Part shown: positions 21,815-64,000 of the stretch, one piece after another
How the letters are laid out: every line of letters starts with the position of its first letter
Numbering within the stretch: position 1 is the first letter of the stretch
Origin: Meghimatium bilineatum
Lineage: Eukaryota; Mollusca; Gastropoda; Stylommatophora; Philomycidae
Length of the DNA stretch: 64,000 nucleotides
Direction: 5' to 3'
NCBI GenBank assembly: GCA_034231615.1
Contig: CM067298.1
Coordinates: forward strand, 23,033,238-23,097,237
The notes under the pieces: generated by a model
Told to the model about the DNA's origin: nothing
Seen by the model: only the letters and a program-made list of their open reading frames with translations
The model's database searches: none
Translations under genes and position numbers: made by a program

Positions 21815-22530
21815 GAATACAGCGGTGATTGTTCCCATCTTGAAGAAAAAACGCAGTGAGAAGGACTAAGTATAGAGGCATATCACTCGTATGCCACATA
21901 GGAAAAATCTTTGGCAATATAATAGAGAGAAGGTTGCACACATATAAGTAAGCATATAGAACCACGGCTCAACAACACACACATGGGCTTTCAAAAAATA
22001 AAAGCTGTACAGGTGCAATCTTCGGCCTCAAACAACTTAATAGAACATAACCAAGACTTACATTTGGCTTTCGTGGACCAAGAGAAAGCTTTTGACAGAT
22101 TGAATAGAGCACAACTATCGATAACACTACAGACATATGGAATTCCCCAACTTACCCAACATCTGATAAACCTATGTCAGAGCATGTAATCTAGGACAAT
22201 AGTCAATACTCAGTAAGAAAGACCACGGGTACATCTGATAATTTTCAAATTCACTCTGGTGTGAGACAGGGATGTGTAATATCCCCCCTATTGCTCACAA
22301 CATACATATATCACATCTGCAAAGTAGCAAAGACAACGAAAGGAAACAATCTAAAGGATAACTTAAGCAAACTACTATTTGCAGACGACCAAGCATTTGT
22401 GGAGTCATCAGAAGAGCAACTAAAAAGACAAATAGATAGATTACATCAAATATGTCATACCTTTAACATGAAGATAAGCATAGAAAAGACCGAAGTAATG
22501 AAGATAGGAAGAACAGAACGAATCTCCAAT
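21815..22530 (+). mobile_element. LINE family 5: reverse transcriptase fragment
   Basis: Plus frames read KYRGISLVCHIGKIFGNII (with frameshifts, 21865-21925), MGFQKIKAVQVQSS, LHLAFVDQEKAFDRLNRAQL (palm motif A), VRQGCVISPLLLTTYIY (motif B) and LLFADDQAFVESSEEQLKRQ (motif C, F-A-D-D). Motif order and spacing fit an RT. A gap with stops between motifs A and B shows decay. It ends at a short TA run next to the Penelope fragment. Confidence 0.82.
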
Positions 22531-22599: not shown

Positions 22600-23060
<461 letters not shown>

Positions 23061-39400: not shown

Positions 39401-42400
39401 TCAACACCTCTTTAATTACTGCTCTTTCCTCTAAACTGCCTGGAAAAAACTTTTAGACACCCTTTACAAACACTAGTAATAGCCATTTATCACAGGTGAT
39501 GATAACAGTTTCAGACTTGTATTGTTGCATCTCTCTGGTCTGTGCGGAGATGACTGAAAAATCCAATCTTAGCATATAATCTCCTGCTAAATTTGTATTA
39601 ACCTTTAGCGCGCTATGTTTACAATTACGCAATATTTCTTGTGCCGCTGGCTGCAGTGGAATTGGTTTTCGAAATGTTACGCAATCGTCGGTGGCTGTTT
39701 TGAAATCGCGATAACTTCTTTGTTGTTACAGATATTTAAATAATATTTGCACATATAAATAAAGAATTAAATTCTGCAAAAAATTGGTGTAAGTTTTGTT
39801 TGTGTGTGTGTGATACGAGGCGTGTGAGAAAGTGATAAAGTCAAATTTAGACATATCTCGATCTAGACCTACCGTATTTTTGATCGATTGTAAGCTTTGA
39901 AATCTGTTGTCTATTATATATTTTACATATGGAAACATCGTAGAATCACATATGAAAAACCTACCTGTCGACTTTTCCGCTGTTTAATCTGTTGAAATGA
40001 TAATTTCACTGAATATACTATTGATAAATAGTATCATAAACACGATTCACTGTCTTGTCGCTTCGCCACGATGCAGAAGACTACAAATTGCTGGAATTTC
40101 CATGTCAAAATCACTTCATATCGTTTTCCGCGCGAATCTGCTATCACAAACAAAATGGAGTCAAATTTTGTCCCAGTGTTGGCATAACATTCTGTAAAAA
40201 ATGCTACAGATCTAGATTTTTTCGTTCGGCATCGGGTTTTCCGAATCAGGCGGTTGATTTTGACTTCAGCAATCAATATATGCCAAATTCCGGCAGAATG
40301 CCTCTCCCAAATTGTATACACAGTGTGCTAAAGGTTAAAGCAATATTTTACAAAATGTATGTTATAGCGGGCAGATTGTACTGGCAGCTTCAATCTGGGA
40401 CAGAGATTAGTCATGCAAACAAACAGTTCAGTGAAAAAACATTACTTAGTGCTTGTACTTGATAAAAACATGCTCAGATTTGTTGTCTTATTGCATTATA
40501 TCCATGTAATTCTAGAAGTCTGATTTGTCTCAGTCACCTAATATGGACAATGAAGAGCATACCACTCATAAAGATCCCGGTGATATTAGTGATAGTGATT
40601 CATCACATGATGTTGACCTTTTGCCTATCACTAACAGCAGCACACGTTTGAAAGATGAATCACAGCTGAGCAGAGGAGTAAGACGTGAATTATACAATCA
40701 AAGTCAGGCTTTAATTTCCACACAGGCAAATATGGTTAGTAAGTTGACAGATCATTATCGCTGCACATCAAAAAATTGGTTCATATGTGCTCACATTTCC
40801 TGTTCAAGATAACCCTCAGCAAATAGTGGCTGACTATGTCCACTCTGTATCATTTGATTGCTAAATCAGGTAAAAAAATATTACATTGCCATATTTGAAT
40901 AATTAATGAAGGAATTCTTGAAACTGGCATTGGTTTAAATTATTCATTTTATGAAATTCATACACGAGTACCACAACAGGCATGATGTCGATGAAATTTA
41001 ACACTTTCCCAATAACACCTAAGTCTTCCTCGCTGCCACAACATTTTATAGGTATGAGTATAACAATCAACCAATATTGTTAGGGTGTTAAAACTTTCGT
41101 AAAATGTTCAGACAAGAATAAGCTTTCCAAAAACATTTATAATAATAAGTTTATTAAAGAGGTTTCATTCCCATTTATTTTTGAATTATTTTCTCTAGAA
41201 GGGCAGTGTCACTTTCCCGTTTTTGAGATGGGTGTCCATCACTTGCTCTTAGAACCACAGAACTATCCATCTATATGTATGAATCTATGACCATCATTAC
41301 TTGAATCATAGTACAATTTTTGTATCTGATTCTGAGTCAGTTTTTTTGCTGAAAAGGTTTGAATTAGTCATTTTGGATATTGATATCATCAGCTGCATTG
41401 TATTTTTTGAAGTATTCTTTAAAAACACTCAATAAAATGATTATGTCTTTGAATATCGGCAGTGAATCGATTTAATAACAGGCACCATCATTTTGGAATG
41501 ATATTTGTGATAAACTGGAAGACTTGTAATATGTTGCCATATATTTTGTCGATGAGCAATATATTGTAATGATGAGGTAAAAACATGACATCTTGGATTA
41601 AAATCTGCCATGAGTGATTTAATTTTGCCAAGCAGACCTAACTTCAGATTATAGCTGGTGATTCACAAGTTGTCATTTCACAATGTTTCTATCTATGATT
41701 TATTCCTAGATAAATCTGGTTGATAATGATGTTCCTCTTTCAAAGATGAGCATATCATAGAATACAAATCTATAGTGCGTTCATAAATAGTTGTCCACCG
41801 ATATTGTCTATTTTCTCAGTAATTACAGAACGTATAGGCTTCATATTTTGCATGAATGCATTATTTCTTAACCATGTTATAGAATTATGATTAATTATTA
41901 TCTACATTGAATGGATTATCGCAGCAGTTGCGACGAATGCCGTTTTTAAGGTAGTACTGATTTTATTGTATGTGGAAAATAAATTTTTCAGTAATTGCTG
42001 GTATAGGCGTATCGTTAATATGTCGTAGCATGGGTAAAAATGAAATACAATATTCCGAATGTAATATTTTTCTTTCGTTTCATTGAGATTATATGTAACG
42101 ATATATACATTTAAGAGTTAAACGTGTATGTAATTGTATAATTGTGGAAAGTCTTCGCTCTGTGTACATTCTTTACCATTAACAGTAACTCCGGTTTCAA
42201 GTGCATTTCAGTAAATGGAGTATGTTCTTTTCTAAGTCATATGTTAATATCTTCCTTAATAGATGAGGTTGTAAGAATCTTATCTTCGCATGCAATAACA
42301 TTATGGAAGGAAGCTTGTCCATAACTAGACAGGATGGTCTATCTAATGATGGAAGTACAGTCTTTTCTAACCAATTTCTAAAAATATTACCATTCATCTC

Positions 42401-45400: not shown

Positions 45401-46804
45401 CACTCATATTTCCTGATAATTTTATAGAGACTACAAAAATAGTAATTCTTTCTTGATGATCAATTGTCAGACATCAAGAACACCAGTCATGGGGATCATT
45501 AGAGAATCTTCCGCATCCAGTTCACAAGATGGATCTGCCCAACTGGTTTCTGACAGCGATGAGGATGAAACACAGAGATATGACATTGAGAACTCTGATT
45601 TGGTCATGAAAAACACTAAGTATGCATGTTTGGCTATTTTAGTAGCTATAACAGGGGAAAGATTTTGTGAAACAGGGAGATGTGTTTATTGTGATAAAGT
45701 AGGTGAGAGTTGTGTGAAACAGAGAGATGTGTTTATTGTGATAAAGTAGGTGGAAGTTGTGTCAGAGATGTGTTTAGTGTAATAAAGAAGTGGCAAGCTG
45801 CACTAAATAAAAATATGTGATTTTGCTAAATAGGAATTCATTTGAACTCATTTGCTACAGTATTTTTAGTGTTTGGACAGAATTAGTTTTATTTTGCAAA
45901 TCCACAACGGGAACAAGATACAGTAGTTCTATACAATATATTTAAATTATAATGATATATATATATACAGAAATGGACAGAGAATGTGATTATCACAAGT
46001 TAATTTTGAAAATAATTACTGTTATTATTTAACAATTAATTTTAAAAATAAAATATAATATATAAAATAAAATAATTTCTGACATGAAATGTGAACGTAC
46101 CAAACTTTAAAATAACTTAAGTATACAGGTTACTGTAGATAACTGTCAATATAAAATGATAAGAAATAACAACAAAACATAGAAAAAAGACAATGATCGA
46201 TGTGTCTGTCCTATTGGGACCTTTATCAAGAAACAAAAACCAACTAAGACAACACAACCATAAAAAAAAACAGCCATGAAGACATAGGCAATGTCTTCCC
46301 TACAACAAGAGACCATTGCCAAAATGGTGGTTCTAGTGCATCTTTCATATGAGGTGCACAATGATGCTTTCAATATGTGCAAAACTAATGCAATATTGAC
46401 AGACAGAAATGGGCATGGCAAAAATTATGAAACAGAAACCCTAAGCACAAGTTGAAAAATGCAAAAACAAAGAAAGGGAACACCAATTCATGATTCCAAG
46501 AAGGGGGAGGGTTAGGGGCGGGAGATAAAAGGGGAAAGGATAGAGAAAGAAATTAGTAAGCAGGAGGGGAGGGGGGAGGCCTACAAATAGATACGAGAAC
46601 ACAAAAATGTGCAAGAAAAAATAGCAATCAACAGCACATGGGATAGATCCATATCAAAATACACACACACAACTAAACATATATATATATATATATATAT
46701 ATACATTTCATTTCTATCCCATGTGCTGTTGATTTAAAACACAGTGTCCTGGTGGATATAAGTGAGTTGAGAGTGTGTACTGGTGGATATACATATATAG
46801 TGGG

Positions 46805-46844
<40 letters not shown>

Positions 46845-49800
46845 CTTTTGAAATAGACTACGATACATGTGAAGAACTTGCTCAAAATAGATCTACATGG
46901 AGTTCTACAATAAAAAAGAATGCATCATCTTGTGAAAAGAGGAAAAATGCAGCAGCTCAACAGTGGAGAGCAGCTAGAAAGTCACGGATAGACCAAGATC
47001 AGTCTACAGAGGTCATTCCATGTCCGAACTGTCCAAGGACATTTACAGCTCGAATAGGGCTCAATAGCCGCCTGTGAACCCATAATAAAGGACATAACTC
47101 TAATTGAATTTTCAAAAGTGGATGTAACAAATGGTCATCATGACTTGTGATGGACGAACGAACAACATAGTGGGCGGGTTAGGATTGAAAGGGTTAAATA
47201 AAAATTGATGGGTGAAATAGTGAAAGGGTGGAGGTGTAATAGTGGGAAAGTATATTAAATAAGAAATATGGGGAACCTGAGTACAGTTGAAGTAAATCCT
47301 GTATGCAGTTAATCTTGTTACTAGAGCTGCTAAGCTTAATATGTATACTGTTACATAGTAGAGGACTAGATGGTGTAAACAAATTAGTGCAGGCAGAATT
47401 ACCTCTTAGTACAGTGGAATCCGTTATAACAACTTTATTCGGGCCAATGAAATATCTATGTAATAACAGATATTTGCTATATACAATGTGCCATATGACA
47501 TAAACAGCAAAAATAATTGAGGATTATGAAATTGCTGTAAAATAGACAAATTTGTTATAAACGTATGCACTATAATATGATTCCATTGTATCAATTATAC
47601 CTGTAATTATTTTTATATATTTTGTATGTGTTAGATCTCCTGACAATGTGCAACAAAAGCTGACACCTTTAGACATCATTCCTGAAACCCAAACTGCTGA
47701 CAGCACAAAAGAATGCATAACTGAAGAAGATGAAGTGGATTTATCCAGAACAAATGATTGCAAAGTAACTGACAATGTAAGAGAATCTGCGAGTCACAAT
47801 CGTAAATTAGCAGTTTCTATCATGCTTCAGCCACCGACGGTTTGTTACTTTGCTAGCATATTTTCTTATGTTGTTACGTTTCATGCTTCAGCCACCCACG
47901 GTTTGTTAATTTACTAGCATATTTTTTTATGTTGTTACATTTAGACAAATTTAATGTAATAAGATCATAACCTGCCAGGTTGCCTATCGACAAAGACTTA
48001 GAAGGCAAAGTTTTAAGGGCCCATATTGGGCTGAAAGTACATCAAGAATGGTAACTGGTAAACAACCAGAACTGGCTCAGAAAGCAATGGCATACTACTG
48101 AGACCGTATACAATGCCAAGAAGCTCATGATGACCCCACTTAGATCAACCATCAACAGCAAAGGAGATTGCTTAACAAAGATCAGAAAGAGATTAGCAAT
48201 GGCCCTACAAAAAAACACCACAGATGAAAAATCTATGGCAAGGGGCAAATAGAAAAACCAGTTTATTACAGTTATTAAGAAGCTATATGTATCCAGTGGC
48301 AATATATGGTTGTGAGACATGGGCAATGACATCCACAATTGAAAAGAAAATATCGGTATTCAAAATTAAGTCTTATAGTTAATAACACAGGTTCCAGGAA
48401 TAATTAATAAGGAATACCAAACTCCACCTCAACTAAAAGCATTGACACTGGAGATAATAGAAATAAAATACAATCCCAAGGATTGGACACATGTCTACAC
48501 AGATGGATCGGCAGAAGGAGCAGTAAGGAATGGAGGAGGTGGAATTTTTATAAGACTCAAAGATGGGAAGATAATATCAAAAGCTTTTCCAACCGGGAAA
48601 TACTCCTCTAATTTTAGAGCAGAAGCAGTTGCACTCCATCTAGCACTGAAAGCCTTCACCGAACCAGGACTGCCAAGACCAAAGAAGATAGACATATTCA
48701 CAGATTGCAGATCCCTACTGGAATTAATCCAGAGCAACAGAAACCTTCTGCACATTAGACATGAGCTAAGACAGATACAAAAATCAACAGCTATTGCCCT
48801 TCAGTGGATACCATCACACTGTGGAATCATGGGAAATGAGAAAGCGGATGCTCTGTCAAAGGCAGGAAGCGAAATGGAGCAACACAGACACCCACTGTCT
48901 TATGGAGAAGCAAAAACAATAATCCGCAACACATACACAGCAAAGTGGAAGAAACAAATGGAAGGGGAATACGAACATGATGCAATGCATCTCCTCCAAA
49001 GATATCAACAGACCACAATATTTCGCCTTAGAACAGGCCACTGTAGACTGTTGGGTCACCTTTACCTATTCAGGATCTCATACACAGATGAATGTCCATG
49101 TGGATCCAGAACCCAGACTCTGGAACACATACTTCAGGACTGCCCAACATACAAAGAGCAGAGACAGCAGACCTGGCCAGAGGATACAGACTTGAGGCAA
49201 AAGCTATGGGGCAGCCGCTCTGACCTTGAGAAGACGGTGGACTTCGTCTTGACGACAGGTCTGACGGTATAGCATGACCACAGATGCTGAACGCAGAAGA
49301 AGAAGAAATGTTATAGAAAAGTCTTAAGAATATTGTGGACGGAAAGATGAACAAACAGATGTCCACAAAGACCTAAATATAGTAGAATATAGGCCATGGA
49401 ATTTATGATTTGTTCATTTTTATGTTTTTGGTCTTTTTTGTTTTAAAAAATATATACTTTCACAGATATTATTTAAATTAGCGGCAGGGTCTTGTGTAGA
49501 TAATAATTAAATATAAACATTGCATATCAAGCTCATAAATGTGTGTGTGGGGTTCAAACCCACCCCATCTTAAGAAAACAGTATTTTTTAAAGGAATCTC
49601 TCCTTCTTTCTTCTTCCCCCCCCCCTTCATCCTTTAGAAAACCATGGTTGAGATATGTCTACAAAATGTTCCTAAATTTTCCAGTCCTTTGACTATATGC
49701 CATATTTTCTAGATCTGATAACACAGTGAAGATCTGTATATAAGGTTATACTGCTATATATCTTCACAAGTTACGGTGGTTACATTGTTACAGATTTCAC

Positions 49801-58800: not shown

Positions 58801-61800
58801 TCCGATGTGTGGCACACCTGATAAAAATTCTTCTATTAATATGCCTATTGTAATTTTATAATGTTATTTCATAACCAAACTCACATTCATATATCATCTG
58901 CAAAAACAAAACACGTAGATGTCACTTACCTTTTCGGTCCATTCAACACTAGGCATAGAAATATTTCAGTCAGACACACAGTCTTATAATATAATGCAAG
59001 GAAATGTCTGGGTCTATTCTCCGAAACTTAACGTTTTAATAATATTTTCTTTGAAAACAAATGTAAATCCCAAGAATTAATTATCATCAGTATCAGAATC
59101 CACAAAAATTTCATGAAAGATGGCATCCATTTCAACAGAAAATCTTTCTTGCAAACTGAGTAGAAATTAAACACAACCATTCTGTCTTACTTGGGAAAGG
59201 ATTGAGCACGAAGGACAAGATGTAGTCCTAGCTTAGAAGGGTGCAAATTATTGGTCATGTGAGCCTAACATCTTGTTGTTCCTTACCAATAAATAAGTGC
59301 ATAGCAATGGGCGACTGGCATCGCCTACCATTGTATACTGGAAGATACACCTCACAGATTACAGTCATCAACCACATGCTAAAGGTTAATGAAGTAGGGA
59401 CAGACAGTACTATTCGAGGCAGATAGGTGCCATCTGAATTAATCTGGTTCAAATCCTGTCACTGCCTTCTAATGACAGTACTGATCTGGTTTGACAGAGT
59501 GACTGGAAAAATAAGCAGTAAATGTAATCATATGCTGAAAAGACAAGTTATTTGAAATAAACTTCAGATAATGTCTACTTGATAAATAAGAATTGGTTGG
59601 GTAATTCTTCTTAGAAAACATTTTAGAAGAATTGGTTGGGTAAGCTTATTTCTAATATAACTTCTGGTACAAACATTTGTTGACAGGTCATGTTGTGGTC
59701 AAGTCTCTATACACCTCAAGACATCAAGAATCCTGACTGCTATACACAAGTTATTCAGTTGCTTTTTGACATTTATATAGGCCGGGTTCGGAGAGCTCAC
59801 AAGCAAATGAATGGGATAGTCAAAGCCTGGGGACATCCTGTGATTGCTGGGCCTCATATTCCTGAATGTTTCGTAGCAAAGCCCTCAGATATAAAAGTCA
59901 GACTAGTGGAGGATGGAAAAAGTAGGGATGAATGGAGAGGAGTGTCAAGAACTAGATTGCAGAAGATAAAGGAAGTCCAGATGGATGCAGAAAAAATCCA
60001 AACAGAAGCTTATAAAGATGTTGATGAATTTGATCTTGAGTTTGCCAGAACTTGTAGACAGCCACAAGGCAATCAAAACAGTGTGTTATACTTGAGAAAT
60101 AAGTGTCAAGAACCAAATGAAAAGAGGGATACATTGACACAGAGAGGCTGTCAACAGCGTACACAGTATGTGGATGATGATTCAAATGATATGATTGAGG
60201 ATGCAGTGGAGAGTGAAAGTGATGAATGGCTTCCTGGAAAAAATAAACAAGTAAATTTGTCTAAAAGAAAACTAAAAACAAGAGGTGATAATACACAAAA
60301 ACAGGTCAGACAGAACAGAGATTGTAAGAAGGTCAACAAGGGAAAGAGGTTGAAAGACAACAGGGAGACTATGTTTAGCGAATTTGATGCAGAGCTCTCA
60401 GTTGAGGCCAATACAGAAAATCAAACACATGAAGGGAAAAAAGAAACAGACAAGACAACTTGGATCGGAATTGAACGTGAAACTGGACTGAAAGCAGATA
60501 GATTGTCAGAACAGGAAACGTCTTTATTACCAGGATGGAAGAGTAGGAGTTCTCTGCCCAATGTTTCACCATGTCTCACTTTAAGAGATGCATATTCATA
60601 TAAACAGAATGATTCCATGATTGAAGATAAGTTGGCTGAGCAAAGTCTGCACTTGCATCTGGAAGTTGATGATAGTCATGAACAAGTAGAAGTTTTGCTG
60701 TCTGATGATGAGGACAATCCTTGGAGTACAAAGTGTTACATGACTCCTCCTTTTGTGTCAGAAGATAATAATAAAGTTGGGTATAATAACAATCACAGTG
60801 AAATCAAATCAGCGGTTGCTAGAAATATTATTTCCAGCAGCAGTCAGAGCTCTGAGTCCTTGTTAGATATTCATGGTAATCTTTATAGCACACAAATGTC
60901 TCGATCAGGAAATCATCTCAGCCAAGACAATAAGTCTTCTTCTAGTTTGTCTCAACAAGATGTCATGCAAGACTTGAGGTGCGCTGAAGTAGGTAGCAGA
61001 AGTACAGTTGAACAGTCACTAAGAAACATGAACAGAGCAGAAGTTAAAGTACAGATAACTAAAGATAAGGATGAAACTGACCTAGTCGGGACTAAGCTCA
61101 AAAGTCAAGAATCCTCAAAACTAGAATTAAATAGAGGCTCAGGAAACCTGGACAATAATTCTAATGATGATAATAGAGATGAAAGCAATAAAATAGATCA
61201 TCATGATGTGATGATAGAGGGGGTAGAAGACATGGTTTGTCCAGTAAAAACCTTGTCCAATACGAGTACGTTCACAGACAATAGAAGGAAGAGGAACTTG
61301 TTGACATCAGCAAAGGCAGACCAAAACTTTTACAACCTCAAAGAAAGTGTTGAAGGTCAGTCAGTGGAGAAAAGACAAAAGGTTACGTCTGAGCAAGATT
61401 CTGTCAGAACTAGGACTATGAGAAGGAACCGTAAGTTGATAACTGGGGAGACATCCAAGAAAGGTACGATGGAAGAAGTAGATGTTTTAGTGATTAGTGG
61501 TGCTGATTTTTCTGCTGACTACCAAATGGACTCTTCTGTAGAGATGCAGACTTCAATCAAACAGGATGGAGCAATTGTCTTAGATGTGAGTATGTTATCT
61601 GGTTATATCTACATCAGCCGTGTATATGAGTTACTTGCATTGGCATTTTATTTGCTGTATTACAGTTTTATTATGTGTATTAGTTTAATTATTTGGTCAA
61701 ATTAGCTGTGTTGATATTTTTGGTGATGCTAGTAGCTGTTTACAAAAGTTGGTTGTCTCAACAGTTTGATTTGTTTAGTTGTCTTGACATTTCAGTTAGT

Positions 61801-63038
61801 CAAGTTAGTTCTTTTCATATTTTAGTTGATTTGTATAAATAATAATAAGACTCATCGCTTGCCTTAGTTGTAGGGTGCTACATTGAAGACATTAACACAA
61901 AAAGTCCTCCAAACACCTCTATCCTCATTCATTTGGACAAGTGTAGAAAAATCATGCCCAGATCATTCCTTGATGATTGCAATCCAGTATTTTCTTTGTT
62001 TGCCTCCTCTCTTCCACCCTTGACCGTTCCTTACAAAATAGTATTAGAAAGTGAGTCGTGTCTGTCTCGTTACATGTTCAAACTAAACTAGGTTACACCA
62101 TTTTAGCACTGCCAAAAGTAGTTCTTGATAATCTACAAGTTTGTTTATTTGCTGCCGGGTGAATATATTTGTCTTGTGTTCTATATAATTAATTCTTAAC
62201 AAACATCTGTAGCACTTGTATTCAAAAGCCTCAATCCATGTCTGCATTAAATGTCCAGCTTTCACATTTGTATAGAAGTACAGTATGCTTAACACTAGCA
62301 ATTTGAATAGATTAAGCTTTACTTAATACATTGGAATCCCTTTACAGCACATTCTTTTATGACAAATTTCCCTATATAACAACAATTTTCTAATTTCTCA
62401 ATATTTATTCTATTTTGTTTATACTGTATATAGCAAATGTCTGTTATTACATACATATTTGTCAGTCCAGAACAAGTTGTAATTGAATTCCATTGCACTG
62501 ATCTTACTTTTGCAAATCATATTCAACCTTGCCATGACAGTTATCTCGAGTCTTAACTTAATCTCATTTCCTGAGTTGCCATCATCACATATTTGAGACC
62601 TGGGATATTTAAAAGTGGTAACTTCTTCAAGTTTGTGACTGTTTAACCAGATGTTCATGGATCAGTAATTTGTATAAATATAATTAGTTGTCTTGGAATT
62701 GTAGTTGATGTGTGTAGTTTGTTGTCTTGATATTTTAGTTGATGTGTATAGAGTCAGTTGTATTGATATTTTAGTTGTTGTTTGTAGTTAGTTTTGATAT
62801 TTTAGATGTGTATTGAGTCAGTTGTCTTGATATTTTATTTGATATGTGTAGTTTGTTGTGATAATTGTTTAGTTGTTGTACTTTGTGGAATTTAAAAAAA
62901 AGTCTTGTTCAGCTTTCACATTTGTGTTATTTTTAAGTGATATACATTTACCCTTCTTCCCACAGAATATGTGTCCTATTTGTGGCAAGAGTTTTCCTGC
63001 TAACAAGCTTGAAGCACATGCATCATCCTGTGGTGAAG
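27370..63038 (+). CDS. UIMC1: RAP80/UIMC1 ortholog, multi-exon gene model (3' partial, 5' uncertain)
   Basis: RAP80 reads K63-linked ubiquitin (and SUMO) at DNA double-strand breaks and brings the BRCA1-A complex (Abraxas, BRCC36, BRE, MERIT40) to chromatin; it acts in the nucleus. Seen here: an AIR-like region at the start of the exon 59687-61585 and a UBZ4 finger in the exon 62966-63038, in the same order as in vertebrate RAP80. Ten smaller upstream exons have AG acceptors, GT donors and phases that chain without conflict (2,1,0,0,0,0,2,0,2,0, then 0 and 1). The summed exons come to about 2.87 kb, or about 957 codons, longer than the roughly 719-residue human protein even though the 3' end is missing. 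The middle is low-complexity, acidic and Ser/Asn-rich, as in other RAP80 proteins. Introns hold SINEs, LINEs, a mariner element and satellites. The AIR and UBZ exons are firm; upstream exons rest on splice signals, open frame and phase only. Confidence 0.75.
27640..27795 (-). repeat. SINE-B copy, well preserved
   Basis: Plus-strand reading: cttcttcagcgttcattctc, aaactcccgctggatctctc, gtagtccagagaatggaaat, ccaatggtccgacacatccg. Best-preserved member of the family, directly downstream of the candidate exon 27370-27425. Confidence 0.75.
27795..28445. other. Intronic or intergenic sequence, no feature recognised
   Basis: No protein or repeat similarity noticed. Confidence 0.4.
28445..29160 (-). 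mobile_element. Merlin/ISXO2-type transposase remnant
   Basis: Minus strand: KIVEVDKSLFSKRAKF (about 28910-28863), which matches the E-V-D-x-S-x-F-x-K-R first catalytic block. Then after frameshifts come VNHRHSYVDPDMGG (28670), HSIKQMWRSVKWQYKKHNG (28620) and a YLVEFMWRSRL end (28530). The last three are hallmarks of ISXO2-like transposases (Merlin superfamily): N-H-x-x-x-x-V-D-P, then I-E-x-x-W (here I-K-Q-M-W, the catalytic Glu changed to Lys), then Y-L-x-E-F-x-W-R. Terminal repeats were not identified. Inactive. Confidence 0.8.
29356..29578. repeat. Minisatellite, 44-bp unit, five copies
   Basis: gattggcatagattttataa recurs at 29367, 29411, 29455, 29499 and 29544 (steps 44, 44, 44, 45). 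The one longer step is due to aaatattt in place of aaaagtt. Confidence 0.95.
29580..30655. other. Intron sequence without recognised genes
   Basis: Only a 21-bp direct repeat (tccttcatggacttcatga, about 30118-30160) stands out. The 134-codon minus frame at 30255-30659 is not similar to anything I know. Confidence 0.45.
30655..30775 (-). repeat. SINE-B copy, 3' portion
   Basis: Plus-strand reading: ttaattctcaaactcccacc, ggtctttcttatggcaagac, gaatgtagttgagagaacgg, aaatgcgttgtg. Head missing. Confidence 0.65.
31015..31109 (+). CDS. UIMC1: RAP80-like gene, basic N-terminal exon
   Basis: The acceptor tagtttcag is followed by G and then ATG at 31016; the donor is CAAG|gtagga. The frame reads MKRIGRRGRVLG and ends in phase 1. 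The ATG could be the true start, with the preceding G belonging to a 5' UTR, or an internal Met if 27370-27425 is coding. The basic Arg/Lys-rich start is compatible with a nuclear protein; vertebrate RAP80 also begins with a basic stretch, but I see no residue-level alignment. The outgoing phase matches the exon at 32466. Confidence 0.55.
31110..31690. other. Intron sequence without recognised features
   Basis: AT-rich; no repeat partner noticed. Confidence 0.4.
31690..32010. repeat. Two tRNA-like B boxes in opposite orientation
   Basis: 31697-31722 in reverse complement reads GGACCTGGTTCAATCCCCGT; 31980-32005 on the plus strand reads acatggttcaattcccgcca. Both are strong B-box matches followed by cagtctt. 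acctgaccaaccac occurs beside each (31774 and 31880). Suggests two facing fragments of one tRNA-derived SINE. Confidence 0.4.
32466..32527 (+). CDS. UIMC1: RAP80-like gene exon, first half of a UIM-like helix
   Basis: The exon lies between acceptor tttattgttag and donor TTG|gtaagt, 62 nt, phase 1 in and phase 0 out. It encodes an acidic helix ending MSNEEIKETL. Joined to the next exon it gives ETLAAILESS, which fits the core of a ubiquitin-interacting motif: an acidic patch, then A-x-x-x-S. Vertebrate RAP80 has two UIMs in its N-terminal region (the second contains KAIAESL). The upstream acidic residues are fewer than usual, so the UIM call is tentative. The exon call is firmer. Confidence 0.6.
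32847..33123 (+). repeat. SINE-A copy with intact target-site duplication
   Basis: Full-length element from ccgcccatgtgttgcagggt to a tail gaacgaacgtagaagaagaa. The 12-bp duplication aagaaaccatcc flanks it (32835-32846 and 33124-33135, partly merging with the A/G tail). Very similar to 55573-55850. Sits in the RAP80 intron after exon 32466-32527. Confidence 0.85.
33124..33800. other. Intron sequence without recognised features
   Basis: No similarity noticed on either strand. Confidence 0.4.
33800..34083 (+). repeat. SINE-A copy, diverged
   Basis: Head tgctggggcgcgaaagggaa, middle gtcacagtgacccagaagcc, tail ctgcaggagtttgataatga then aagcagaagaagaag. Confidence 0.8.
34195..34510 (+). mobile_element. 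LINE family 1: C-terminal and 3' end fragment
   Basis: Plus frames read IKHIKRQQVKWFGHLMRMNP, then NQIPIRAYNKRISRHKTKGR, then WIEKVKIT, followed by the 3' end cctttacgcttaacagcatg, accatcattcacctgggaat, agacaaaag. It matches 17405-17745 and 6250-6330 in reverse. Confidence 0.75.
34676..34758. repeat. Three-copy direct repeat of about 34 bp
   Basis: taggtaagtgaagacaaaa at 34680 and 34713, then a shorter taagtaagtgaac at 34746. Confidence 0.85.
34935..34967 (+). CDS. UIMC1: RAP80-like gene, 33-nt micro-exon completing the UIM-like helix
   Basis: The acceptor gtgtttcag and donor CAT|gtaagt bound an 11-codon exon (AAILESSPLLH), phase 0 on both sides. It supplies the Ala and Ser of the A-x-x-x-S core of the putative UIM, so inclusion or skipping would switch the motif without shifting the frame. 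The intron on its right contains a SINE-B and two retroelement fragments. Confidence 0.6.
35025..35170 (-). repeat. SINE-B copy, diverged
   Basis: Plus-strand reading: ttgttctcaagctcccattg, ttttactagatttccagcag, gttttagtccagagaacaaa, ccaatgacctgacatatca. Just downstream of the micro-exon 34935-34967. Confidence 0.65.
35335..35700 (+). mobile_element. LINE family 6: C-terminal tail fragment
   Basis: Plus strand: EQVVILHLRTGPTDCA, a short frameshift, FKIGDTAMCTCG-like (35427), then KHILQDCPEYEMLRHTQ. This is the H-L-R-T-G-H ... C-x-C-G ... H-I-L-Q-x-C-P tail of the 48.4-kb copy. Ends in atgtttcaagtgaac then an aaaagaagaagaa tail, which is duplicated (35620 and 35678). Confidence 0.75.
35870..37015 (+). 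mobile_element. LINE family 6: 5' end and endonuclease fused to C-terminal tail (internal deletion)
   Basis: 36000-36340 is a non-coding 5' region (cgaggaagcaccttgaaatg, tgtgacggacattcatgcag). It is followed by an endonuclease with frameshifts: LQWNADGVIRKRDG-like (36362), EEQVHVCIQETHFSSDS-like (36436), then EFHLLNYYCPNDRLLALNTI-like (36670), then a VCGDFGQN-like end (36757). Directly at about 36775 this joins FKIGNTAMWTAQ and EHILQEYTEYETLRQTYWPE, the extreme C-terminus. The whole RT and RNase H are missing. Tail ends aacgaaagaagaagaa. Confidence 0.75.
37240..37344 (+). CDS. UIMC1: RAP80-like gene exon (105 nt)
   Basis: The acceptor atttaacttttcag and donor GAT|gtaagg bound 35 codons, phase 0 on both sides. 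The peptide is Ser/Thr- and Glu/Asp-rich and ends ILDPEKEMAD; no domain is recognised. Only this frame connects to both neighbours. Confidence 0.6.
37440..37612. repeat. Degenerate minisatellite, about 22-25-bp unit
   Basis: Repeated ttctttcattggatgggaag with shifts; five to six imperfect units. Directly downstream of exon 37240-37344. Confidence 0.85.
37612..38425. other. Intron sequence; cryptic 26-nt exon-like segment only
   Basis: ttttctacag|...|gtaagt at 38274-38300 looks like an exon, but its length (26 nt) breaks the otherwise consistent phases. No other feature recognised. Confidence 0.4.
38425..38590 (-). repeat. SINE-B copy, well preserved
   Basis: Plus-strand reading: cttcttcagcgttcattctc, aaactcccgctggatttctc, tgtagtccagagaatggaaa, gccagtggcccaacacatcc. 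Confidence 0.75.
38590..39050. other. No identifiable feature
   Basis: Contains a short G-rich run (catggggggga) at about 38774; nothing else recognised. Confidence 0.4.
39050..39430 (+). mobile_element. RNase H fragment of a LINE, decayed
   Basis: Plus strand reads I-P-G-H-S-G-P-A-G-N-E-I-A-A-K, the last RNase H block (G-H-x-G ... G-N-E-x-A-D with the Asp replaced by Ala). It then reads NTHVEW-like and RLDQTH-like pieces after frameshifts. Related to, but more diverged than, LINE family 6. Confidence 0.5.
39602..40334. mobile_element. piggyBac-like non-autonomous element (733 bp)
   Basis: TTAA flanks at 39598-39601 and 40335-40338. Terminal inverted repeats CCTTTAGCGCGCTATG (left) and CCTTTAGCACACTGTG (right, reverse complement), 13 of 16 identical. 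TTAA duplication and CCYTT ends are the hallmark of piggyBac. The left part (tgttttgaaatcgcgataac, aaataaagaattaaattctg) is shared with 57701-57990 and, more weakly, 50697, 56450 and 58380. No transposase frame. Confidence 0.7.
40534..40734 (+). CDS. UIMC1: RAP80-like gene exon, acidic with SIM-like core
   Basis: The acceptor gatttgtctcag is followed by an open frame beginning SPNMDNEEH. It contains ISDSDSSHDVDLLPIT, where an acidic/Ser run abuts a hydrophobic V-D-L-L-P-I core. That arrangement resembles SUMO-interaction motifs; human RAP80 has a SIM near FIVISDSD. Two donors are possible: ATG|gttagt at 40735 (phase 0, fits the next exon) and a better-consensus gtaagt at 40739 (phase 1, does not fit). 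I chose 40734 on phase. The exon begins about 200 bp right of a piggyBac-like element. Confidence 0.6.
40740..41770. other. Intron sequence without recognised features
   Basis: AT-rich; nothing recognised between the exon and the mariner element. Confidence 0.4.
41773..41962 (+). repeat. Left terminal inverted repeat of the mariner element
   Basis: Pairs with 43743-43933; internal landmarks: gttgtccaccgatattgtct, attatgattaattatt, tcgcagcagttgcga. Confidence 0.88.
42130..43200 (-). pseudogene. Mariner-type transposase, broken by a SINE and frameshifts
   Basis: Minus strand, in order: KKRNERTK and VDNF-like DNA-binding end (about 43120); a RKPHLVTMRSQYLRQIRR-like segment (about 42930); QENYDIV, the SINE, then YTDETWINASH (first catalytic Asp in DETW, 42583-42594). 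After frameshifts come NIFRNWLEKTVLPSL and SCLVMDK (second Asp, codon 42317-42319), then SSIKEDINIWLKKEHTPFT-like and a LKPELLLMVK-like helix. The third catalytic residue's region was not found. This DETW/VMD(N)A arrangement is typical of a mariner-related family common in invertebrates. Confidence 0.8.
42610..42869 (+). repeat. SINE-C (tRNA-derived) inside the transposase, with 9-bp target-site duplication
   Basis: Starts gcagggagctgcttagcgca, with B-box-like gtcctgtgttcactcccc, the gaggcggaaatgtttttcag and gatcgcaacggcttcc blocks, and a T-rich 3' end. The duplication tacaatatc is perfect (42601-42609 and 42870-42878). It interrupts the transposase one codon before Y-T-D-E-T-W; removing it restores the local reading. 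Confidence 0.92.
43743..43933 (-). repeat. Right terminal inverted repeat of the mariner element
   Basis: Reverse complement of 41773-41962, with differences such as tgctgcgataaatccgttca in place of the left arm's matching block. Confidence 0.88.
43936..44640 (-). mobile_element. LINE C-terminal region, decayed
   Basis: Minus strand: SHVIHMSDKYLKKKLFFGEL (about 44280), then a S-V-G-K-C and V-W-K-I segment, then DHSAWSNQCRN-like (44110). This follows the G-H-V-x-R-M ... L-P-K-x-L-F-Y-G-E-L ... D-R-x-x-W-R pattern of LINE tails. It abuts the right end of the mariner element. Confidence 0.6.
44640..44905 (-). mobile_element. LINE C-terminal fragment
   Basis: Minus strand reads I-E-K-x-K-I-K-W-F-G-Q-F-L-R-M-Y-S-Q-Q-L, the same block as the EKQQIKWLARLMIMNHNQLP segment in LINE family 1. 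Confidence 0.55.
45090..45335 (+). repeat. Three tandem copies of a SINE-B 3' tail (about 80 bp each)
   Basis: ctttggactaaaatcctgct then gctacaagcaagatttggtg then gaagtttgagaac, starting near 45098, 45177 and 45254 (last one shorter). Upstream SINE parts are absent, so these are duplicated tails, ending about 135 bp before the exon 45471-45619. Confidence 0.85.
45471..45619 (+). CDS. UIMC1: RAP80-like gene exon with acidic SDSDEDE motif
   Basis: The acceptor gatcaattgtcag and donor AA|gtatgc bound 149 nt, phase 0 in and phase 2 out. The peptide starts TSRTPVMGIIRESS and contains QLVSDSDEDETQ, a hydrophobic step followed by an acidic/Ser run typical of phospho-dependent SIMs. The split Lys codon is completed by the A that begins the exon at 47635. 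The donor is weaker than the others. Confidence 0.6.
45655..45780. repeat. Short direct duplication next to exon 45471-45619
   Basis: gagatgtgtttattgtgata occurs at 45679 and 45724, each followed by aagtaggtg. Two full copies and one decayed one. Confidence 0.8.
46140..46760 (-). mobile_element. Penelope-like terminal-repeat candidate, with purine-rich tract and inverted repeat
   Basis: Minus strand carries TTGATAA, AGGTCCCAATAGGAC and AGACA at 46230-46204 (GTCC pairs with GGAC), comparable to the block at 26021. A long purine-rich stretch (46495-46590) is the complement of the pyrimidine-rich stretch at 25490-25980. A 21-bp perfect inverted repeat (46626-46646 and 46714-46734) encloses a TA run. 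Confidence 0.4.
46626..46734. repeat. Perfect 21-bp inverted repeat around a TA microsatellite
   Basis: The left arm aatcaacagcacatgggata(g) is exactly complementary to the right arm ending tgtgctgttgatt. The 67-bp loop contains acacacacaac and an AT run of about 12 units (46678-46702). Confidence 0.95.
46808..46842. repeat. (TA)n microsatellite
   Basis: About 17 TA units immediately before a LINE tail. Confidence 0.95.
46845..47108 (+). mobile_element. LINE C-terminal end with CCHH-type finger
   Basis: Plus strand after the TA run: AQNRSTWSSTIKKNASSCEK, then RKNAAAQQWRAARKSR, then STEVIPCPNCPRTFTARIGL, a stop in place of an H-L codon region, and THNKGHN. The C-P-x-C-x-R-x-F-x-A-R-I-G-L ... 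H...H end is the standard C-terminus of one LINE group. Confidence 0.75.
47108..47634. other. Intron sequence without recognised features
   Basis: AT-rich; nothing recognised. Confidence 0.4.
47635..47776 (+). CDS. UIMC1: RAP80-like gene exon (142 nt)
   Basis: The acceptor tttgtatgtgttag and donor AAT|gtaaga bound the exon, phase 2 in and phase 0 out. The frame reads SPDNVQQKLTPLDIIPETQT and then an acidic EEDEVDL stretch. No folded domain is recognised. Only this frame is open and phase-compatible with both neighbours. Confidence 0.6.
47820..47945. repeat. Two-copy direct repeat of about 60 bp
   Basis: catgcttcagccaccgacgg at 47820 and catgcttcagccacccacgg at 47881, each followed by tttgtta and ctagcatattttt. 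Confidence 0.85.
48045..48378 (+). mobile_element. LINE fragment (left half of a host element split by LINE family 6)
   Basis: Plus strand: W-Q-G-A-N-R-K-T-S-L, then SYMYPVAIYGCETWAMTSTI, then EKKISVFKIKSY. This is the post-RT region of a LINE. The next expected residues (CYRKVLRILW) appear only at 49304, after the inserted element. Confidence 0.72.
48379..49310 (+). mobile_element. LINE family 6: intact RNase H domain and C-terminus, 5' truncated
   Basis: An open frame of 276 codons (48442-49272) holds a full RNase H: VYTDGSAEGA (first Asp), NFRAEAVAL (Glu), IDIFTDCRSLLEL (second Asp), WIPSHCGIMGNEKADAL (final Asp). The C-terminal tail FRLRTGHCRLLGHLYLFR, then DECPCGSRTQTLEHILQDCP follows, with a stop at 49270-49272. 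The 3' end is gaacgcagaagaagaagaa. A short imperfect duplication around ttatag (48373-48378 and 49311-49316) marks insertion into another LINE. The best-preserved coding segment of any transposon in the window. Confidence 0.88.
49311..49400 (+). mobile_element. LINE fragment (right half of the split host element)
   Basis: Reads K-C-Y-R-K-V-L-R-I-L-W-T with one frameshift, continuing the element interrupted at 48378. Confidence 0.6.
49720..50095. repeat. Degenerate minisatellite, about 34-bp unit, roughly ten copies
   Basis: Repeated cttcacaagttactgaggtt then acactgttacagat with many substitutions and indels. Borders the RNase H fragment at 50105. Confidence 0.85.
50105..50463 (+). mobile_element. 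LINE family 4: RNase H end plus C-terminal motif, copy 2
   Basis: Uninterrupted frame: TWIYCPGHAGVRGNERADLL, then AGNAAIDGTLLRRDKAVINS, then a MLEIGVFRGEGRKSKF segment, then LLERRVEHLWECPAC and stop. Collinear with 21200-21570 without its frameshift. 5' truncated inside RNase H. Ends about 115 bp before the micro-exon 50578-50612. Confidence 0.85.
50578..50612 (+). CDS. UIMC1: RAP80-like gene, 35-nt micro-exon
   Basis: A strong polypyrimidine acceptor (ttttttatttcag) and a strong donor (CAG|gtaagc) flank 35 nt reading NKQDTLLTSIY plus a split codon (phase 0 in, phase 2 out). The other two frames contain stops. It requires a downstream exon of length 1 mod 3 before the phase-0 exon at 59687; the 22-nt candidate at 54011 meets that. 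Confidence 0.5.
50697..51660. mobile_element. piggyBac-like element, left end recognisable
   Basis: TTAA at 50693-50696 followed by CCTTTTGCACTACGGC. The interior (aaaatgcaataacttttttg, tgtaaataaagaa) matches 56480-56590, 57790-57860 and 58440-58500. The region 51530-51640 (gtcatgtgaacccaacattt, tgcacagcaaaaggg) matches 59253-59320. The right terminus is not identified. Confidence 0.5.
51931..52275. repeat. Minisatellite, 47-bp unit, seven to eight copies
   Basis: ctgattgtatggcaattgtt at 51933, 51980, 52030, 52077, 52124, 52171 and 52218, with a broken unit at 52265. All steps are 47 except one of 50. The array is bracketed by near-identical tgtcatgttgcaaaaacta segments (51912 and 52313). 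Confidence 0.95.
52436..53745. repeat. Minisatellite, 33-bp unit, about 39 copies with higher-order structure
   Basis: catgattgttgtgtatgaga recurs at exact 33-bp steps. Units differ almost only at one spot: tgggcat (G type), taggcat (A type) or taagcat (B type). Because 33 is divisible by 3 and the unit has no stop in two minus frames, there are long artificial frames (502 and 414 codons; repeat peptides HKLFLIHNNHA and MPTNYFSYTTI). These should not be annotated as proteins. Confidence 0.97.
53750..53962. repeat. Degenerate flank of the 33-bp array, about 36-40-bp units
   Basis: Four to five imperfect repeats of gaggaaggtcagatgttttg then tgacatgattgttgtatat. The end of each unit resembles the 33-bp satellite, so this looks like its older or ancestral flank. 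Confidence 0.85.
54011..54032 (+). CDS. UIMC1: Candidate 22-nt micro-exon of the RAP80-like gene
   Basis: The acceptor ctccccag is followed by 22 nt and the donor AAG|gtaatg. With incoming phase 2 it reads R-KHLIQNK and leaves phase 0, as the AIR exon needs. A second acceptor (atcacttag, 53993) would give a 39-nt exon reading HLTPQKTLDTEQ, but only in phase 1, and it does not fit the neighbours. The sequence context looks exonic; the exact borders are uncertain. Confidence 0.35.
54065..54330 (-). repeat. SINE-A copy, diverged
   Basis: Plus-strand reading: cttcttctgcatttgttctc, gcaagatgtagtccagattg, tcacattgacccataggatg, cagtgttgctattctatgca. About 30 bp downstream of the candidate micro-exon. 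Confidence 0.7.
54420..54610. repeat. Degenerate minisatellite, about 22-24-bp unit
   Basis: Roughly eight copies of a-cactgaatg-caataa-ttaaa, drifting in length. Confidence 0.85.
54590..55565 (-). mobile_element. LINE related to family 2, split by a SINE-A
   Basis: Minus strand, right to left: M-K-K-T-K-I-I-P-T-D-K-T-K then IENCNLEEMTHFNYLGTNIN then NAGDCVVEIK (55560-55390). After the SINE (55125-55375) come a degraded middle and the C-terminus GGDDRRKLEQRPPK-like (54780) ending IEQTTFWKEYIT (54650-54620). The T-T-F-W-K-E-Y end matches LINE family 2, but overall similarity is low. Confidence 0.7.
55125..55375 (-). repeat. SINE-A copy inserted in the LINE
   Basis: Plus-strand reading: cttctttcttctgcgtttgt, tctcaaactcctgcagatta, ggtttacagcattgctgcaa, gccaactccatcccataacc, and a head near gcagtgttgctattcttta. 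Confidence 0.82.
55573..55850 (+). repeat. SINE-A copy, youngest-looking, with 11-bp target-site duplication
   Basis: From gcccgtgtgttgccggggcc to aacgaagaagaagaag, flanked by attaaaaattt (55562-55572 and 55851-55861). Closely matches 32847-33123. Lies 3' of and partly within the LINE remnant on the opposite strand. Confidence 0.9.
56338..57311. mobile_element. piggyBac-like elements, two nested TTAA-bounded termini
   Basis: Inner pair: CCTTTAGGGCTCTGA at 56399-56413 and its perfect inverse at 57297-57311, flanked by TTAA at 56395 and 57312. A second TTAA-CCTTTATGACTCTG terminus starts at 56334, and a GGAAGG-TTAA terminus ends at 57295. cgcaatgttgcg occurs near both outer ends (56347 and 57262). 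The interior shares blocks with the other copies of this family. No transposase frame. Confidence 0.65.
56377..56436. repeat. Perfect 20-bp hairpin at the left end of the piggyBac-like element
   Basis: GGGGATGTTTCTTAATTTTT (56377-56396) is exactly complementary to 56417-56436; the 20-nt loop is the piggyBac terminus aacctttagggctctgactt. Confidence 0.97.
57701..58140. mobile_element. piggyBac-like element, left part
   Basis: TTAA (57697-57700) then CTTTTCGCACGCTGTG. The next about 280 bp parallel 39602-39900 (ggtggctgttttgaaattgc, aaataaagaattaaattctg, tgtgtgtgtgatacgag). Cut off by the retroelement fragment that follows. Confidence 0.6.
58140..58365 (+). mobile_element. LINE family 4: C-terminal tail, copy 3
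   Basis: Plus strand reads Y-T-L-R-D-L-L-K-R-R-S-E-H-L-W-T-C-P-V-C and then a stop (58275-58350), equivalent to the R-S-E-Q-L-W-T-C-P-D-C and R-V-E-H-L-W-E-C-P-A-C ends of the other copies. Upstream homology is frameshifted. Confidence 0.7.
58375..59389. mobile_element. piggyBac-like element, right end and interior
   Basis: Interior blocks (gttggtgggtgtttggaaaa, acatgtaaataaagaattga; then gtcatgtgagcctaacatct near 59256) match 50697-51640. The right end ATGCTAAAGG-TTAA at 59376-59389 is the inverse of the family terminus. A short minus frame MDAIFHEIFVDSDTDDN (59130-59080) could be the acidic start of a lost transposase; that is speculative. Confidence 0.5.
59440..59470 (+). repeat. tRNA-like B-box fragment
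   Basis: ctggttcaaatcctgtcact resembles the segment at 4853-4875; no full SINE body is seen. Confidence 0.3.
59590..59645. repeat. Short direct repeat before the AIR exon
   Basis: agaattggttgggtaa occurs at 59589 and 59628, about 40 bp apart, upstream of the acceptor at 59686. Confidence 0.85.
59687..61585 (+). CDS. UIMC1: RAP80 main exon: AIR region plus long acidic/Ser-rich linker
   Basis: The acceptor ttgttgacag is followed by 633 open codons and the donor GAT|gtgagt (phase 0 on both sides). The first 50 residues match the Abraxas-interacting region of RAP80: a Trp, then NPDCYTQVI (human DPNQYTKVI, 59729-59755), a basic helix GRVRRAHKQM, and a G-x-P-V-x-x-x-P tail. AIR docks RAP80 onto Abraxas and so onto the whole BRCA1-A complex. 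The remaining sequence is disordered, rich in Lys/Glu/Ser/Asn. Two SIM-like cores are visible: VEVLLSDDED (from 60686) and VDVLVIS (61478-61498). The open frame runs on to 61705 as intron read-through, and the hydrophobic tail after 61585 should not be taken as a membrane segment. The frame also contains an ATG at 59690, but homology places this as an internal exon. Confidence 0.85.
61706..62080. other. Intron sequence, T-rich, no feature recognised
   Basis: Loose repeats of ttagttg and ttgtcttgaca begin here and become denser at 62660-62880. Confidence 0.45.
62083..62660 (-). mobile_element. LINE family 8: post-RT segment, decayed
   Basis: Minus strand: N-I-W-L-N-S-H-K-L-E-E-V-T-T-F-K-Y, then a N-E-I-K-L-R-L block and MARLNMICKSKIS (62640-62480). 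Then the frame LQTWIEAFEYKCYRCLLRIN-like, YIEHKTNIFTRQQINKLVDY and a QELLLAVLKWCNLV end (62240-62083). These match the L-E-E-V-x-x-F-K-Y-L ... A-x-A-R-L-x-x-I-W ... A-F-E-x-K-C-x-R-x-L-L-R-I-x-Y-x-E-H-K-T-N order of a LINE group widespread in molluscs and other invertebrates. Stops and a gap between halves. Confidence 0.75.
62660..62880. repeat. Degenerate minisatellite, about 35-40-bp unit
   Basis: Five to six imperfect copies of gttgtcttgatattttagtt then gatgtgtatagagtcagtt. Confidence 0.8.
62966..63038 (+). CDS. UIMC1: RAP80 exon encoding UBZ4 zinc finger
   Basis: The acceptor ccttcttcccacag and donor GAAG|gtgaat bound the exon, phase 0 in and phase 1 out. The peptide contains CPICGKSFPANKLEAHASSC, with ligands C-x2-C-x11-H-x3-C, the exact UBZ4 spacing. 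Vertebrate RAP80 has CPLCDQCFPPTKIERHAMYC at the same place, downstream of the AIR. The second zinc-finger exon expected next is not seen before the window ends. Confidence 0.88.
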
Positions 63039-63425: not shown

Positions 63426-63580
63426 ATTTCATTCATTCTTAAGCTCTCACCTGATATCTCTCTTACAGCAGACAACGAACATACAATATTTCTAGCGGGA
63501 TATAGTCCAGAGAGAGGAAATGTGCTGTCGTCATTTTATTTGCAACAATGACCCAACACATCAGACTTCGATGATTTTTC
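63425..63580 (-). repeat. SINE-B copy, diverged
   Basis: Plus-strand reading: cattcattcttaagctctca, cctgatatctctcttacagc, gatatagtccagagagagga, gcaacaatgacccaacacat. Confidence 0.65.
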
Positions 63581-64000
63581 TAGAATAAAATTTTAACCCA
63601 CATTGATAGGTTATATTTCATTAGTGCAGCCATTTTTAATTGATGTACTATCCCAAATGAGCTATTATTTGTAATACTACATATACCGTTGCGATATTTC
63701 TGAAGTATAAATGTTTTGATGGTCACCAAGGGTAAATAACATACATTCAGAAACTGGCACTGTAGAATTTGGTCAGTAAAGAGTCATTCATGGAAACAAA
63801 GGTTCTAAGAAAGTGAAAGCGTCAGCCCAAGGTGTTGATGGAATCAGGATATCAAAGACCTTTTTAATAGAACGCTAGAAGAATCAGATCAACTTTCACT
63901 ATCAGAAAATATTGCAGAATAGCAGTGAGGTCAACATTCTGTAAAGGACACAGCACATAGAAGAAGGTTCATCTAATTGTCTGTTTATCTTTAAAGTTTA
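63580..64000. other. No identifiable feature
   Basis: Window end; nothing recognised. Confidence 0.4.

What the first reader, a model, noticed from the sequence alone, without database searches (positions are those of the whole stretch)
59687..63038. Invertebrate RAP80 with both AIR and UBZ4 recognisable
The exon 59687-61585 starts with an AIR-like block (NPDCYTQVI against human DPNQYTKVI, with the basic helix and G-x-P-V tail conserved), and the next exon carries a canonical UBZ4 finger. RAP80 is best known from vertebrates; this is evidence for the docking and ubiquitin-reading modules of BRCA1-A in an invertebrate. The linker between them is long and almost unconserved.
Basis: partly seen in the sequence, partly recalled or inferred. 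Interest (0 to 1): 0.7.

Follow-up and report, generated by a model that had tools for sequence, protein, structure and literature searches.

The report
Divergent RAP80 DNA-repair adaptor gene
A large animal genome carries a divergent gene for RAP80, the adaptor that in mammals plugs a ubiquitin-cutting complex of BRCA1 onto damaged DNA; its docking segment and zinc fingers are recognisable, but its usual ubiquitin-binding helices were not found.

Summary
Exon 59687-61585 opens with a segment that aligns along the RAP80 AIR (15 of 51 residues identical; 0 of 5000 shuffles as good; best of 2805 window reading-frame stretches; RAP80 chains first and second of 177,635 PDB sequences, but only at E 0.48 and 0.69). 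Exon 62966-63038 carries a CCHC finger closest to RAP80 finger 1 in a four-finger panel, though not in a PDB-wide search. AIR, finger, finger is the human order. No convincing ubiquitin-interacting motif was found in 140 kb upstream of the AIR. I read the gene as a divergent RAP80/UIMC1 orthologue that docks on BRE-MERIT40 through the AIR and reads ubiquitin through its C-terminal fingers (inferred). New member of a known kind.

The parts
32466..32527 (+). candidate upstream mini-exon (AGITQDVQQEMSNEEIKETL), phase 1 to 0; uncertain
   Evidence: tttattgttag acceptor and TTG|GTAAGT donor; codon score 6.5-7.1, close to the minus-strand maximum of 6.3 in the window; not a UIM by profile
40516..40734 (+). 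exon A, N-terminal region before the AIR (both ends tentative)
   Evidence: best interval of the window after exon D in a scan trained on D alone (16.6); phase 0 to 0. The better-looking donor 4 nt downstream (GTAAGT at 40739) would be out of phase with exon B. No Pfam family
45471..45619 (+). exon B, acidic stretch SAQLVSDSDEDET
   Evidence: lies inside the scan interval 45428-45698, score 11.0; the exon ends were chosen by hand to fit phase 0 to 2; no Pfam family
47635..47776 (+). exon C, acidic region before the AIR exon; donor GTAAGA
   Evidence: score 8.7, next interval (retroelement RNase H) 8.4; phase 2 to 0, in phase with exon D; no Pfam family
59687..61585 (+). exon D, 633 codons: AIR followed by a long linker
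   Evidence: open frame and splice sites
59696..59854 (+). AIR-like docking segment (residues 4-56 of exon D)
   Evidence: PDB-wide phmmer ranks RAP80 1st and 2nd of 3 hits; 0 of 5000 shuffles reach the score, 1st of 2805 stretches
62966..63038 (+). exon E, first CCHC zinc finger, phase 0 to 1
   Evidence: splice sites and phase
62972..63031 (+). UBZ4-like finger CPICGKSFPANKLEAHASSC
   Evidence: 10 of 20 identical to human RAP80 finger 1, best of a four-finger panel; PDB RAP80 match 16.0 bits, RAD18 17.4 bits

Best explanation
This is a divergent orthologue of RAP80 (UIMC1). Shown by sequence: an AIR-type segment, a long linker, a UBZ4-like finger and a second CCHC finger, in the human order, in a phase-consistent multi-exon gene model that runs past the end of the window. 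Inferred: the AIR fills the channel of BRE (BRCC45) next to MERIT40 and is clamped by the Abraxas-type scaffold, as in mammals. The C-terminal finger(s) hold the BRCC36 deubiquitinase on ubiquitylated chromatin at DNA breaks. Because no convincing tandem UIM was found, ubiquitin reading in this lineage may rest on the fingers, or on diverged or split UIMs.
For: AIR: score 62 against shuffle maxima of 54 and 51, extrapolated p about 1.7e-6, next best stretch 41; RAP80 is 1st and 2nd of 177,635 PDB sequences with a collinear alignment from W to the last P. RAP80 is the only molecule name met both by the AIR piece (all 3 hits) and by the finger (60 of 64 hits shown), though through different chains: the AIR constructs 9smn and 6gvw, and full-length 9sqy. 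Finger 1 to human finger 1 scores 67, against RAD18 60, WRNIP1 52, RAP80 finger 2 40. A second finger, CISCGHRVPHGMLRLHQESC, lies 3.7 kb downstream of exon E in L009; it scores 36 with human finger 2 and 22 with human finger 1. A 37-nt exon with strong splice sites joins them in phase and a last exon ends in a stop. In a codon scan trained on exon D alone, the three best other plus-strand intervals hold exons A, B and C (16.6, 11.0, 8.7); the best minus-strand interval of the window scores 6.3.
Against: AIR identity is only 15 of 51 and no search E-value is below 0.48; the full exon found nothing at E<=10. Finger 1 by itself is not RAP80-specific; after shuffling its non-metal residues RAD18 is as significant as RAP80 (0 of 5000 each) and WRNIP1 nearly so (1 of 5000). 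Finger 2 is weak: human finger 2 is matched slightly better by the new finger 1 (40) than by the new finger 2 (36), and the new finger 2 is closer to the new finger 1 (43) than to any human finger; it finds no RAP80 among the 60 of 92 PDB hits shown, the best being FGF receptor kinases at E 0.25, and Pfam gives XAF1_C at 0.0089, under cut-off. Exon C (8.7) is barely above a retroelement interval (8.4), and with looser settings a minus-strand interval in the window reaches 8.1. No convincing UIM. SIM-like motifs are at chance (2 found, 0.89 expected, 23% of 2000 shuffles). No transcript and no partner gene was seen.
Confidence: 0.85

Rival explanations
1. It is another UBZ4 DNA-repair protein (RAD18-, WRNIP1- or SLX4-like) and the AIR resemblance is chance.
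For: Finger 1 matches RAD18 slightly better than RAP80 in the PDB-wide search (17.4 against 16.0 bits).
Against: No RING, SAP, AAA or nuclease domain in exons A, B, C or D (0 Pfam families each). The AIR is unlikely by chance. A second CCHC finger follows, as in human RAP80, though its own similarity is weak.
Confidence: 0.08
2. Exon D and exon E belong to two different genes that happen to be adjacent.
For: No transcript evidence. An alternative terminal exon at 63469-63551 with AATAAA at 63584 also splices in phase after exon E, so the 3' structure is not unique.
Against: Same strand, 1.4 kb apart, phase 0 to 0 with good donor and acceptor, and human domain order. No search for a polyadenylation signal was made between D and E.
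Confidence: 0.05
3. It is an orthologue that keeps the AIR but has really lost the UIMs, so it docks the complex without UIM-based K63-chain selectivity, or reads ubiquitin only by its fingers. In the extreme form translation starts at ATG 59690 and the protein begins with the AIR.
For: No plus-strand stretch from 80 kb upstream of the window to the AIR reaches a good UIM profile score (best 5.5 bits there, against 28-29 for the human UIMs, which are in the profile). None of the 19 rows printed from 2417 enumerated spliceable intervals carries the motif. A strongly coding minus-strand stretch just upstream (L003:8468-9718) suggests that the 5' end lies within the window.
Against: UIMs are about 20 residues and could be split by an intron or have diverged. 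Loose patterns did match on the plus strand (5 places; 8 upstream of the AIR); I set these aside by eye as hydrophobic, non-acidic or retroelement. The junction of the candidate mini-exon with exon A reads NEEIKETLKSDLSQS, resembling human UIM2 at a shuffle frequency of 0.04 (0.24 against the UIM1+2 region). The minus-strand gene could also be nested: plus-strand coding intervals lie further upstream. The true 5' end is unknown.
Confidence: 0.3

Closest known systems
RAP80 / UIMC1 of mammals (PDB 9smn, 9sqy, whose AIR equals the recalled human letters; 6gvw, recalled to be mouse)
   Same: AIR collinear over 53 columns; UBZ4-like finger 10 of 20 identical with the same C-x2-C-x11-H-x3-C spacing; second CCHC finger after it; order AIR, finger 1, finger 2
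   Different: AIR only 15 of 51 identical; 579 residues from AIR to finger 1 against about 173-176; 15 residues between the fingers against 38 (9sqy numbering); no convincing tandem UIM
BRISC/ARISC core of insects (BRCC36-KIAA0157-BRE-MERIT40; PMC4579573 and PMC7692841, passages seen)
   Same: This is the pre-vertebrate form of the complex on which an AIR outside vertebrates would dock
   Different: No passage seen mentions RAP80 outside vertebrates; partner genes were not searched here
RAD18 UBZ4
   Same: Same finger spacing; 8 of 20 identical (RAD18 letters recalled)
   Different: Finger of a RING E3 ligase (recalled); no RING in the exons tested

Membership tests
RAP80/UIMC1 | AIR segment docking on BRE-MERIT40 | tested here: met
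   Sequence only: score 62, 0 of 5000 shuffles, best PDB match RAP80. Docking itself not tested.
RAP80/UIMC1 | UBZ4-type finger C-terminal to the AIR | tested here: met
   10 of 20 identical, best of a panel of four fingers; not RAP80-specific in PDB or Pfam searches
RAP80/UIMC1 | second CCHC finger after the first | tested here: met
   A C-x2-C-x11-H-x3-C finger in L009 exon 2692-2798, in phase through a 37-nt exon. Presence met; similarity to human finger 2 weak and not mutual best
RAP80/UIMC1 | tandem UIMs N-terminal to the AIR | tested here: inconclusive
   None convincing in 140 kb upstream of the AIR; split or diverged UIMs cannot be excluded; 5' end unknown
RAP80/UIMC1 | SIM near the N-terminus | tested here: inconclusive
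   Two SIM-like motifs by pattern, both C-terminal to the AIR, no more than chance; the N-terminus is incomplete
RAP80/UIMC1 | partners BRE, MERIT40, BRCC36 and an Abraxas-type scaffold in the same genome | not tested
   Searches of G000 with PF06113, PF18282 and PF18110 did not complete (and repeats)
RAP80/UIMC1 | binding to BRE-MERIT40 and to K63-linked ubiquitin | not testable with these tools
RAD18 or WRNIP1 | RING/SAP or AAA domain in the same protein | tested here: not met
   0 Pfam families in exons A, B, C, D; the 5' end beyond exon A is not covered

The most novel reading that the evidence does not exclude
In a non-vertebrate animal RAP80 keeps its docking AIR and both C-terminal fingers but has no tandem UIMs. 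Docking on the BRCC36 core would then be older than the vertebrate Abraxas/ABRO1 duplication, and ubiquitin would be read through the fingers; selective K63-chain reading by UIMs would be lost here or a vertebrate addition.
Probability: 0.25. Interest if true: 0.6.

Novelty: new member of a known kind. Interest (0 to 1): 0.38.

Why it matters
[quoted passage not shown] A RAP80 with AIR and both fingers outside vertebrates would mean that the adaptor and its docking mode came first, on the ancestral single-scaffold complex, and that short, fast-evolving motifs hid it from ordinary ortholog searches. It also asks which ubiquitin-binding module of RAP80 is ancestral. The gene itself is an expected kind, so interest is moderate. 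I recall, unchecked, that automated annotation already labels some invertebrate proteins RAP80-like.

Tried and rejected
First 3' model: exon E spliced to 63469-63551 with AATAAA at 63584, giving a RAP80 without a second finger. It was dropped as the main model after the downstream flank showed a second finger with a phase-consistent path. It remains possible as an alternative end. SIM counts were made on that first model (854 aa).

UIM searches: patterns, a small UIM profile and spliceable-interval enumeration (one search printed nothing; one search covered 2417 intervals from 2 kb upstream of the window to exon D and printed 19 rows, none with the motif). Loose matches, such as the reverse-transcriptase stretch at 22384, were set aside by eye. 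The junction 32527/40516 was considered as a diverged UIM2 and not accepted. In one search the mini-exon was ended one base short, so its joined translation there is out of frame and was not used.

The codon scans were trained on exons A-C as well as D and so do not test A-C independently; one search does.

SIM-like motifs: no excess over shuffles. Relatives in viral contigs: none of 2 candidate stretches. In GTDB genomes: 1 of 23 candidates, a 26-residue match outside the AIR in Moraxella, judged chance. Rfam at gathering scores and ARAGORN: nothing in the window.

Literature: in the listings I saw no title or abstract start reporting an invertebrate RAP80 with AIR and finger. This covers the open-access library only; most subscription papers are not in it, and searches listed 20 of 81, 1,948 and 658 papers.

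Full report
What is there. Exon D (59687-61585) is a 1899-nt interval, open in one frame, bounded by gttgacag|GTC and GAT|gtgagt. It sits in a 673-codon open frame, with a chance near 2.5e-19 per starting codon at the window's stop frequency. Its acceptor is pyrimidine-poor, and a scan asking for 55% pyrimidines recovered the exon only from 59877; an ATG stands at 59690. Exon E (62966-63038) has a strong pyrimidine-rich acceptor and GAAG|gtgaat, and is in phase with exon D.

AIR. Residues 4-56 of exon D align with human AIR from the tryptophan to the G-x-P-V-x-x-x-P tail with two one-residue gaps. The count is 15 of 51 identical, score 62; human and mouse AIR differ at 5 of 51 positions (counted on the strings). 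Shuffling the whole exon 5000 times gave a maximum of 54; shuffling its first 71 residues 5000 times gave a maximum of 51 and an extrapolated p of 1.7e-6. Among 2805 six-frame stretches of the window (15 residues or more) the next score was 41. In a phmmer search of 177,635 PDB sequences with the 71-aa piece, RAP80 chains came first and second out of 3 hits at E<=10, at E 0.48 and 0.69; the third, RPAP3, had 1.3. Weak points: the full exon finds nothing at E<=10, and a two-sequence AIR profile ranks exon D first in the window but at E 0.57. The case rests on rank, collinearity and the rest of the gene, not on one E-value.

Finger 1. CPICGKSFPANKLEAHASSC is the only C..C.{11}H.{3,4}C among the 2805 stretches. 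Its best Pfam match is zf-C2HC_2 at 1.6e-4, under the curated cut-off. In the PDB search, generic C2H2 arrays lead, RAD18 has 17.4 bits and full-length RAP80 16.0 bits. In a small panel RAP80 finger 1 is best: 67, then RAD18 60 (letters recalled), WRNIP1 52, RAP80 finger 2 40; shuffling does not separate RAP80 from RAD18 (0 of 5000 each). The finger supports RAP80 but would not prove it alone.

The gene is larger than reported. A codon model trained on exon D alone gave as its best other plus-strand intervals 40516-40734 (16.6), 45428-45698 (11.0), which contains exon B, and 47635-47776 (8.7). The next is an RNase H retroelement ORF at 8.4, close to exon C; the best minus-strand interval of the window scores 6.3. 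With a model that also includes A-C and looser limits, one minus-strand interval of the window reaches 8.1. With ends chosen by hand, the phases chain A-B-C-D-E without conflict; the better-looking GTAAGT donor of exon A, 4 nt downstream, would not be in phase. A to C are therefore likely but their exact ends are tentative.

Downstream of the window. The own-genome search answered once: the window lies in an unnamed assembly of 1.61 Gb in 32 contigs, at C1:23033238-23097237. I fetched 80 kb upstream and 30 kb downstream. In L009, 2.7 kb past the window end, an open frame encodes CISCGHRVPHGMLRLHQESC behind an acttgtctag acceptor. Four stretches in the 174 kb fit the broader pattern C..C.{10,13}H.{3,5}C, two of them these fingers, so by my rough estimate a chance hit within 4 kb on the right strand is about 2%. 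A 37-nt exon at window-relative 64805-64841, the best of 6 candidates, connects exon E (phase 1) to this exon (phase 2), and a last exon 66891-66973 ends in a stop with AATAAA at 67436. Finger scores: new 1 to human 1, 67; new 1 to human 2, 40; new 2 to human 2, 36; new 2 to human 1, 22; new 1 to new 2, 43; human 1 to human 2, 29. Each new finger prefers its human counterpart, but human finger 2 does not prefer the new finger 2. Finger 2 alone finds no RAP80 in the 60 of 92 PDB hits shown and only a sub-threshold Pfam zinc finger. The modelled protein, without its unknown N-terminus, is 902 residues with AIR at 174-226 and fingers from 806 and 841.

What is missing. No convincing UIM was found upstream of the AIR. 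Patterns gave loose matches only: 5 plus-strand places, and 8 upstream of the AIR, set aside by eye. A small profile built from recalled UIMs scores the human RAP80 UIMs at 28-29 bits (not independent, since they are in the profile) and no plus-strand stretch upstream of the AIR above 5.5 bits. Enumeration of 2417 spliceable intervals printed 19 rows, none with the motif. A 416-aa open frame with strong coding signal on the minus strand lies just upstream of the window (L003:8468-9718; no Pfam family above cut-off and no PDB hit at E<=1). This suggests, without proof, that the 5' end of the RAP80 gene is inside the window. A possible mini-exon at 32466-32527 would create NEEIKETLKSDLSQS at the junction with exon A, vaguely like UIM2 but not significant. 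SIM-like motifs are at chance level.

Function. [quoted passage not shown] The residues kept here (W, P, YT-VI, Y, A--Q, G-PV) make the same docking the most likely role; this is inference, and I did not check which of them are contacts. The C-terminal fingers would read ubiquitin; in this gene they are the only ubiquitin-reader candidates recognised. Recruitment of a BRCC36 complex to DNA damage is inferred from the family.

Novelty. One 47-species survey dates UIMC1 to "before vertebrates" (PMC3969565, passages seen). Insects have the BRCC36-KIAA0157-BRE-MERIT40 core (PMC7692841 and PMC4579573, passages seen). The listings of my ten paper searches showed no paper describing an invertebrate RAP80 AIR. 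Whether this host is an invertebrate was not tested. The gene is best filed as a new, divergent member of a known family, with the UIM question open.

Noticed in passing
window 52440-53749: A 33-bp tandem array of about 40 copies, 97% alike, lies in the intron between exons C and D; it is open in all three minus-strand frames, as a period divisible by three allows.
   Followed up: partly
window 48379-49269 +, 50095-50460 +, 22195-22500 +, 7340-7912 -: Retroelement remnants: RNase H and reverse transcriptase domains; the first two lie in the intron between exons C and D. The RNase H match at 50095 (25.2 bits, cut-off 25.8) and the RVT_1 match at 7340 (21.6, cut-off 29.6) are below cut-off.
   Followed up: partly
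L003:8468-9718 (minus), just upstream of the window: A 416-aa open frame with strong coding signal (score 38.3), no Pfam family above cut-off and no PDB hit at E<=1; probably an exon of a divergent neighbouring gene.
   Followed up: partly
window 63469-63551 with AATAAA at 63584: An in-phase alternative terminal exon after exon E with a strong acceptor; it would give an isoform with one finger only.
   Followed up: partly
window-relative -51103 to -50554 and -58480 to -58349 (both in L008): Two coding-like plus-strand intervals far upstream (scores 17.9 and 12.2), probably exons of another gene.
   Followed up: no
window about 22800-22990; L009 about 7750-7900: Long TA dinucleotide runs, seen as YIYI repeats in translations.
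   Followed up: no
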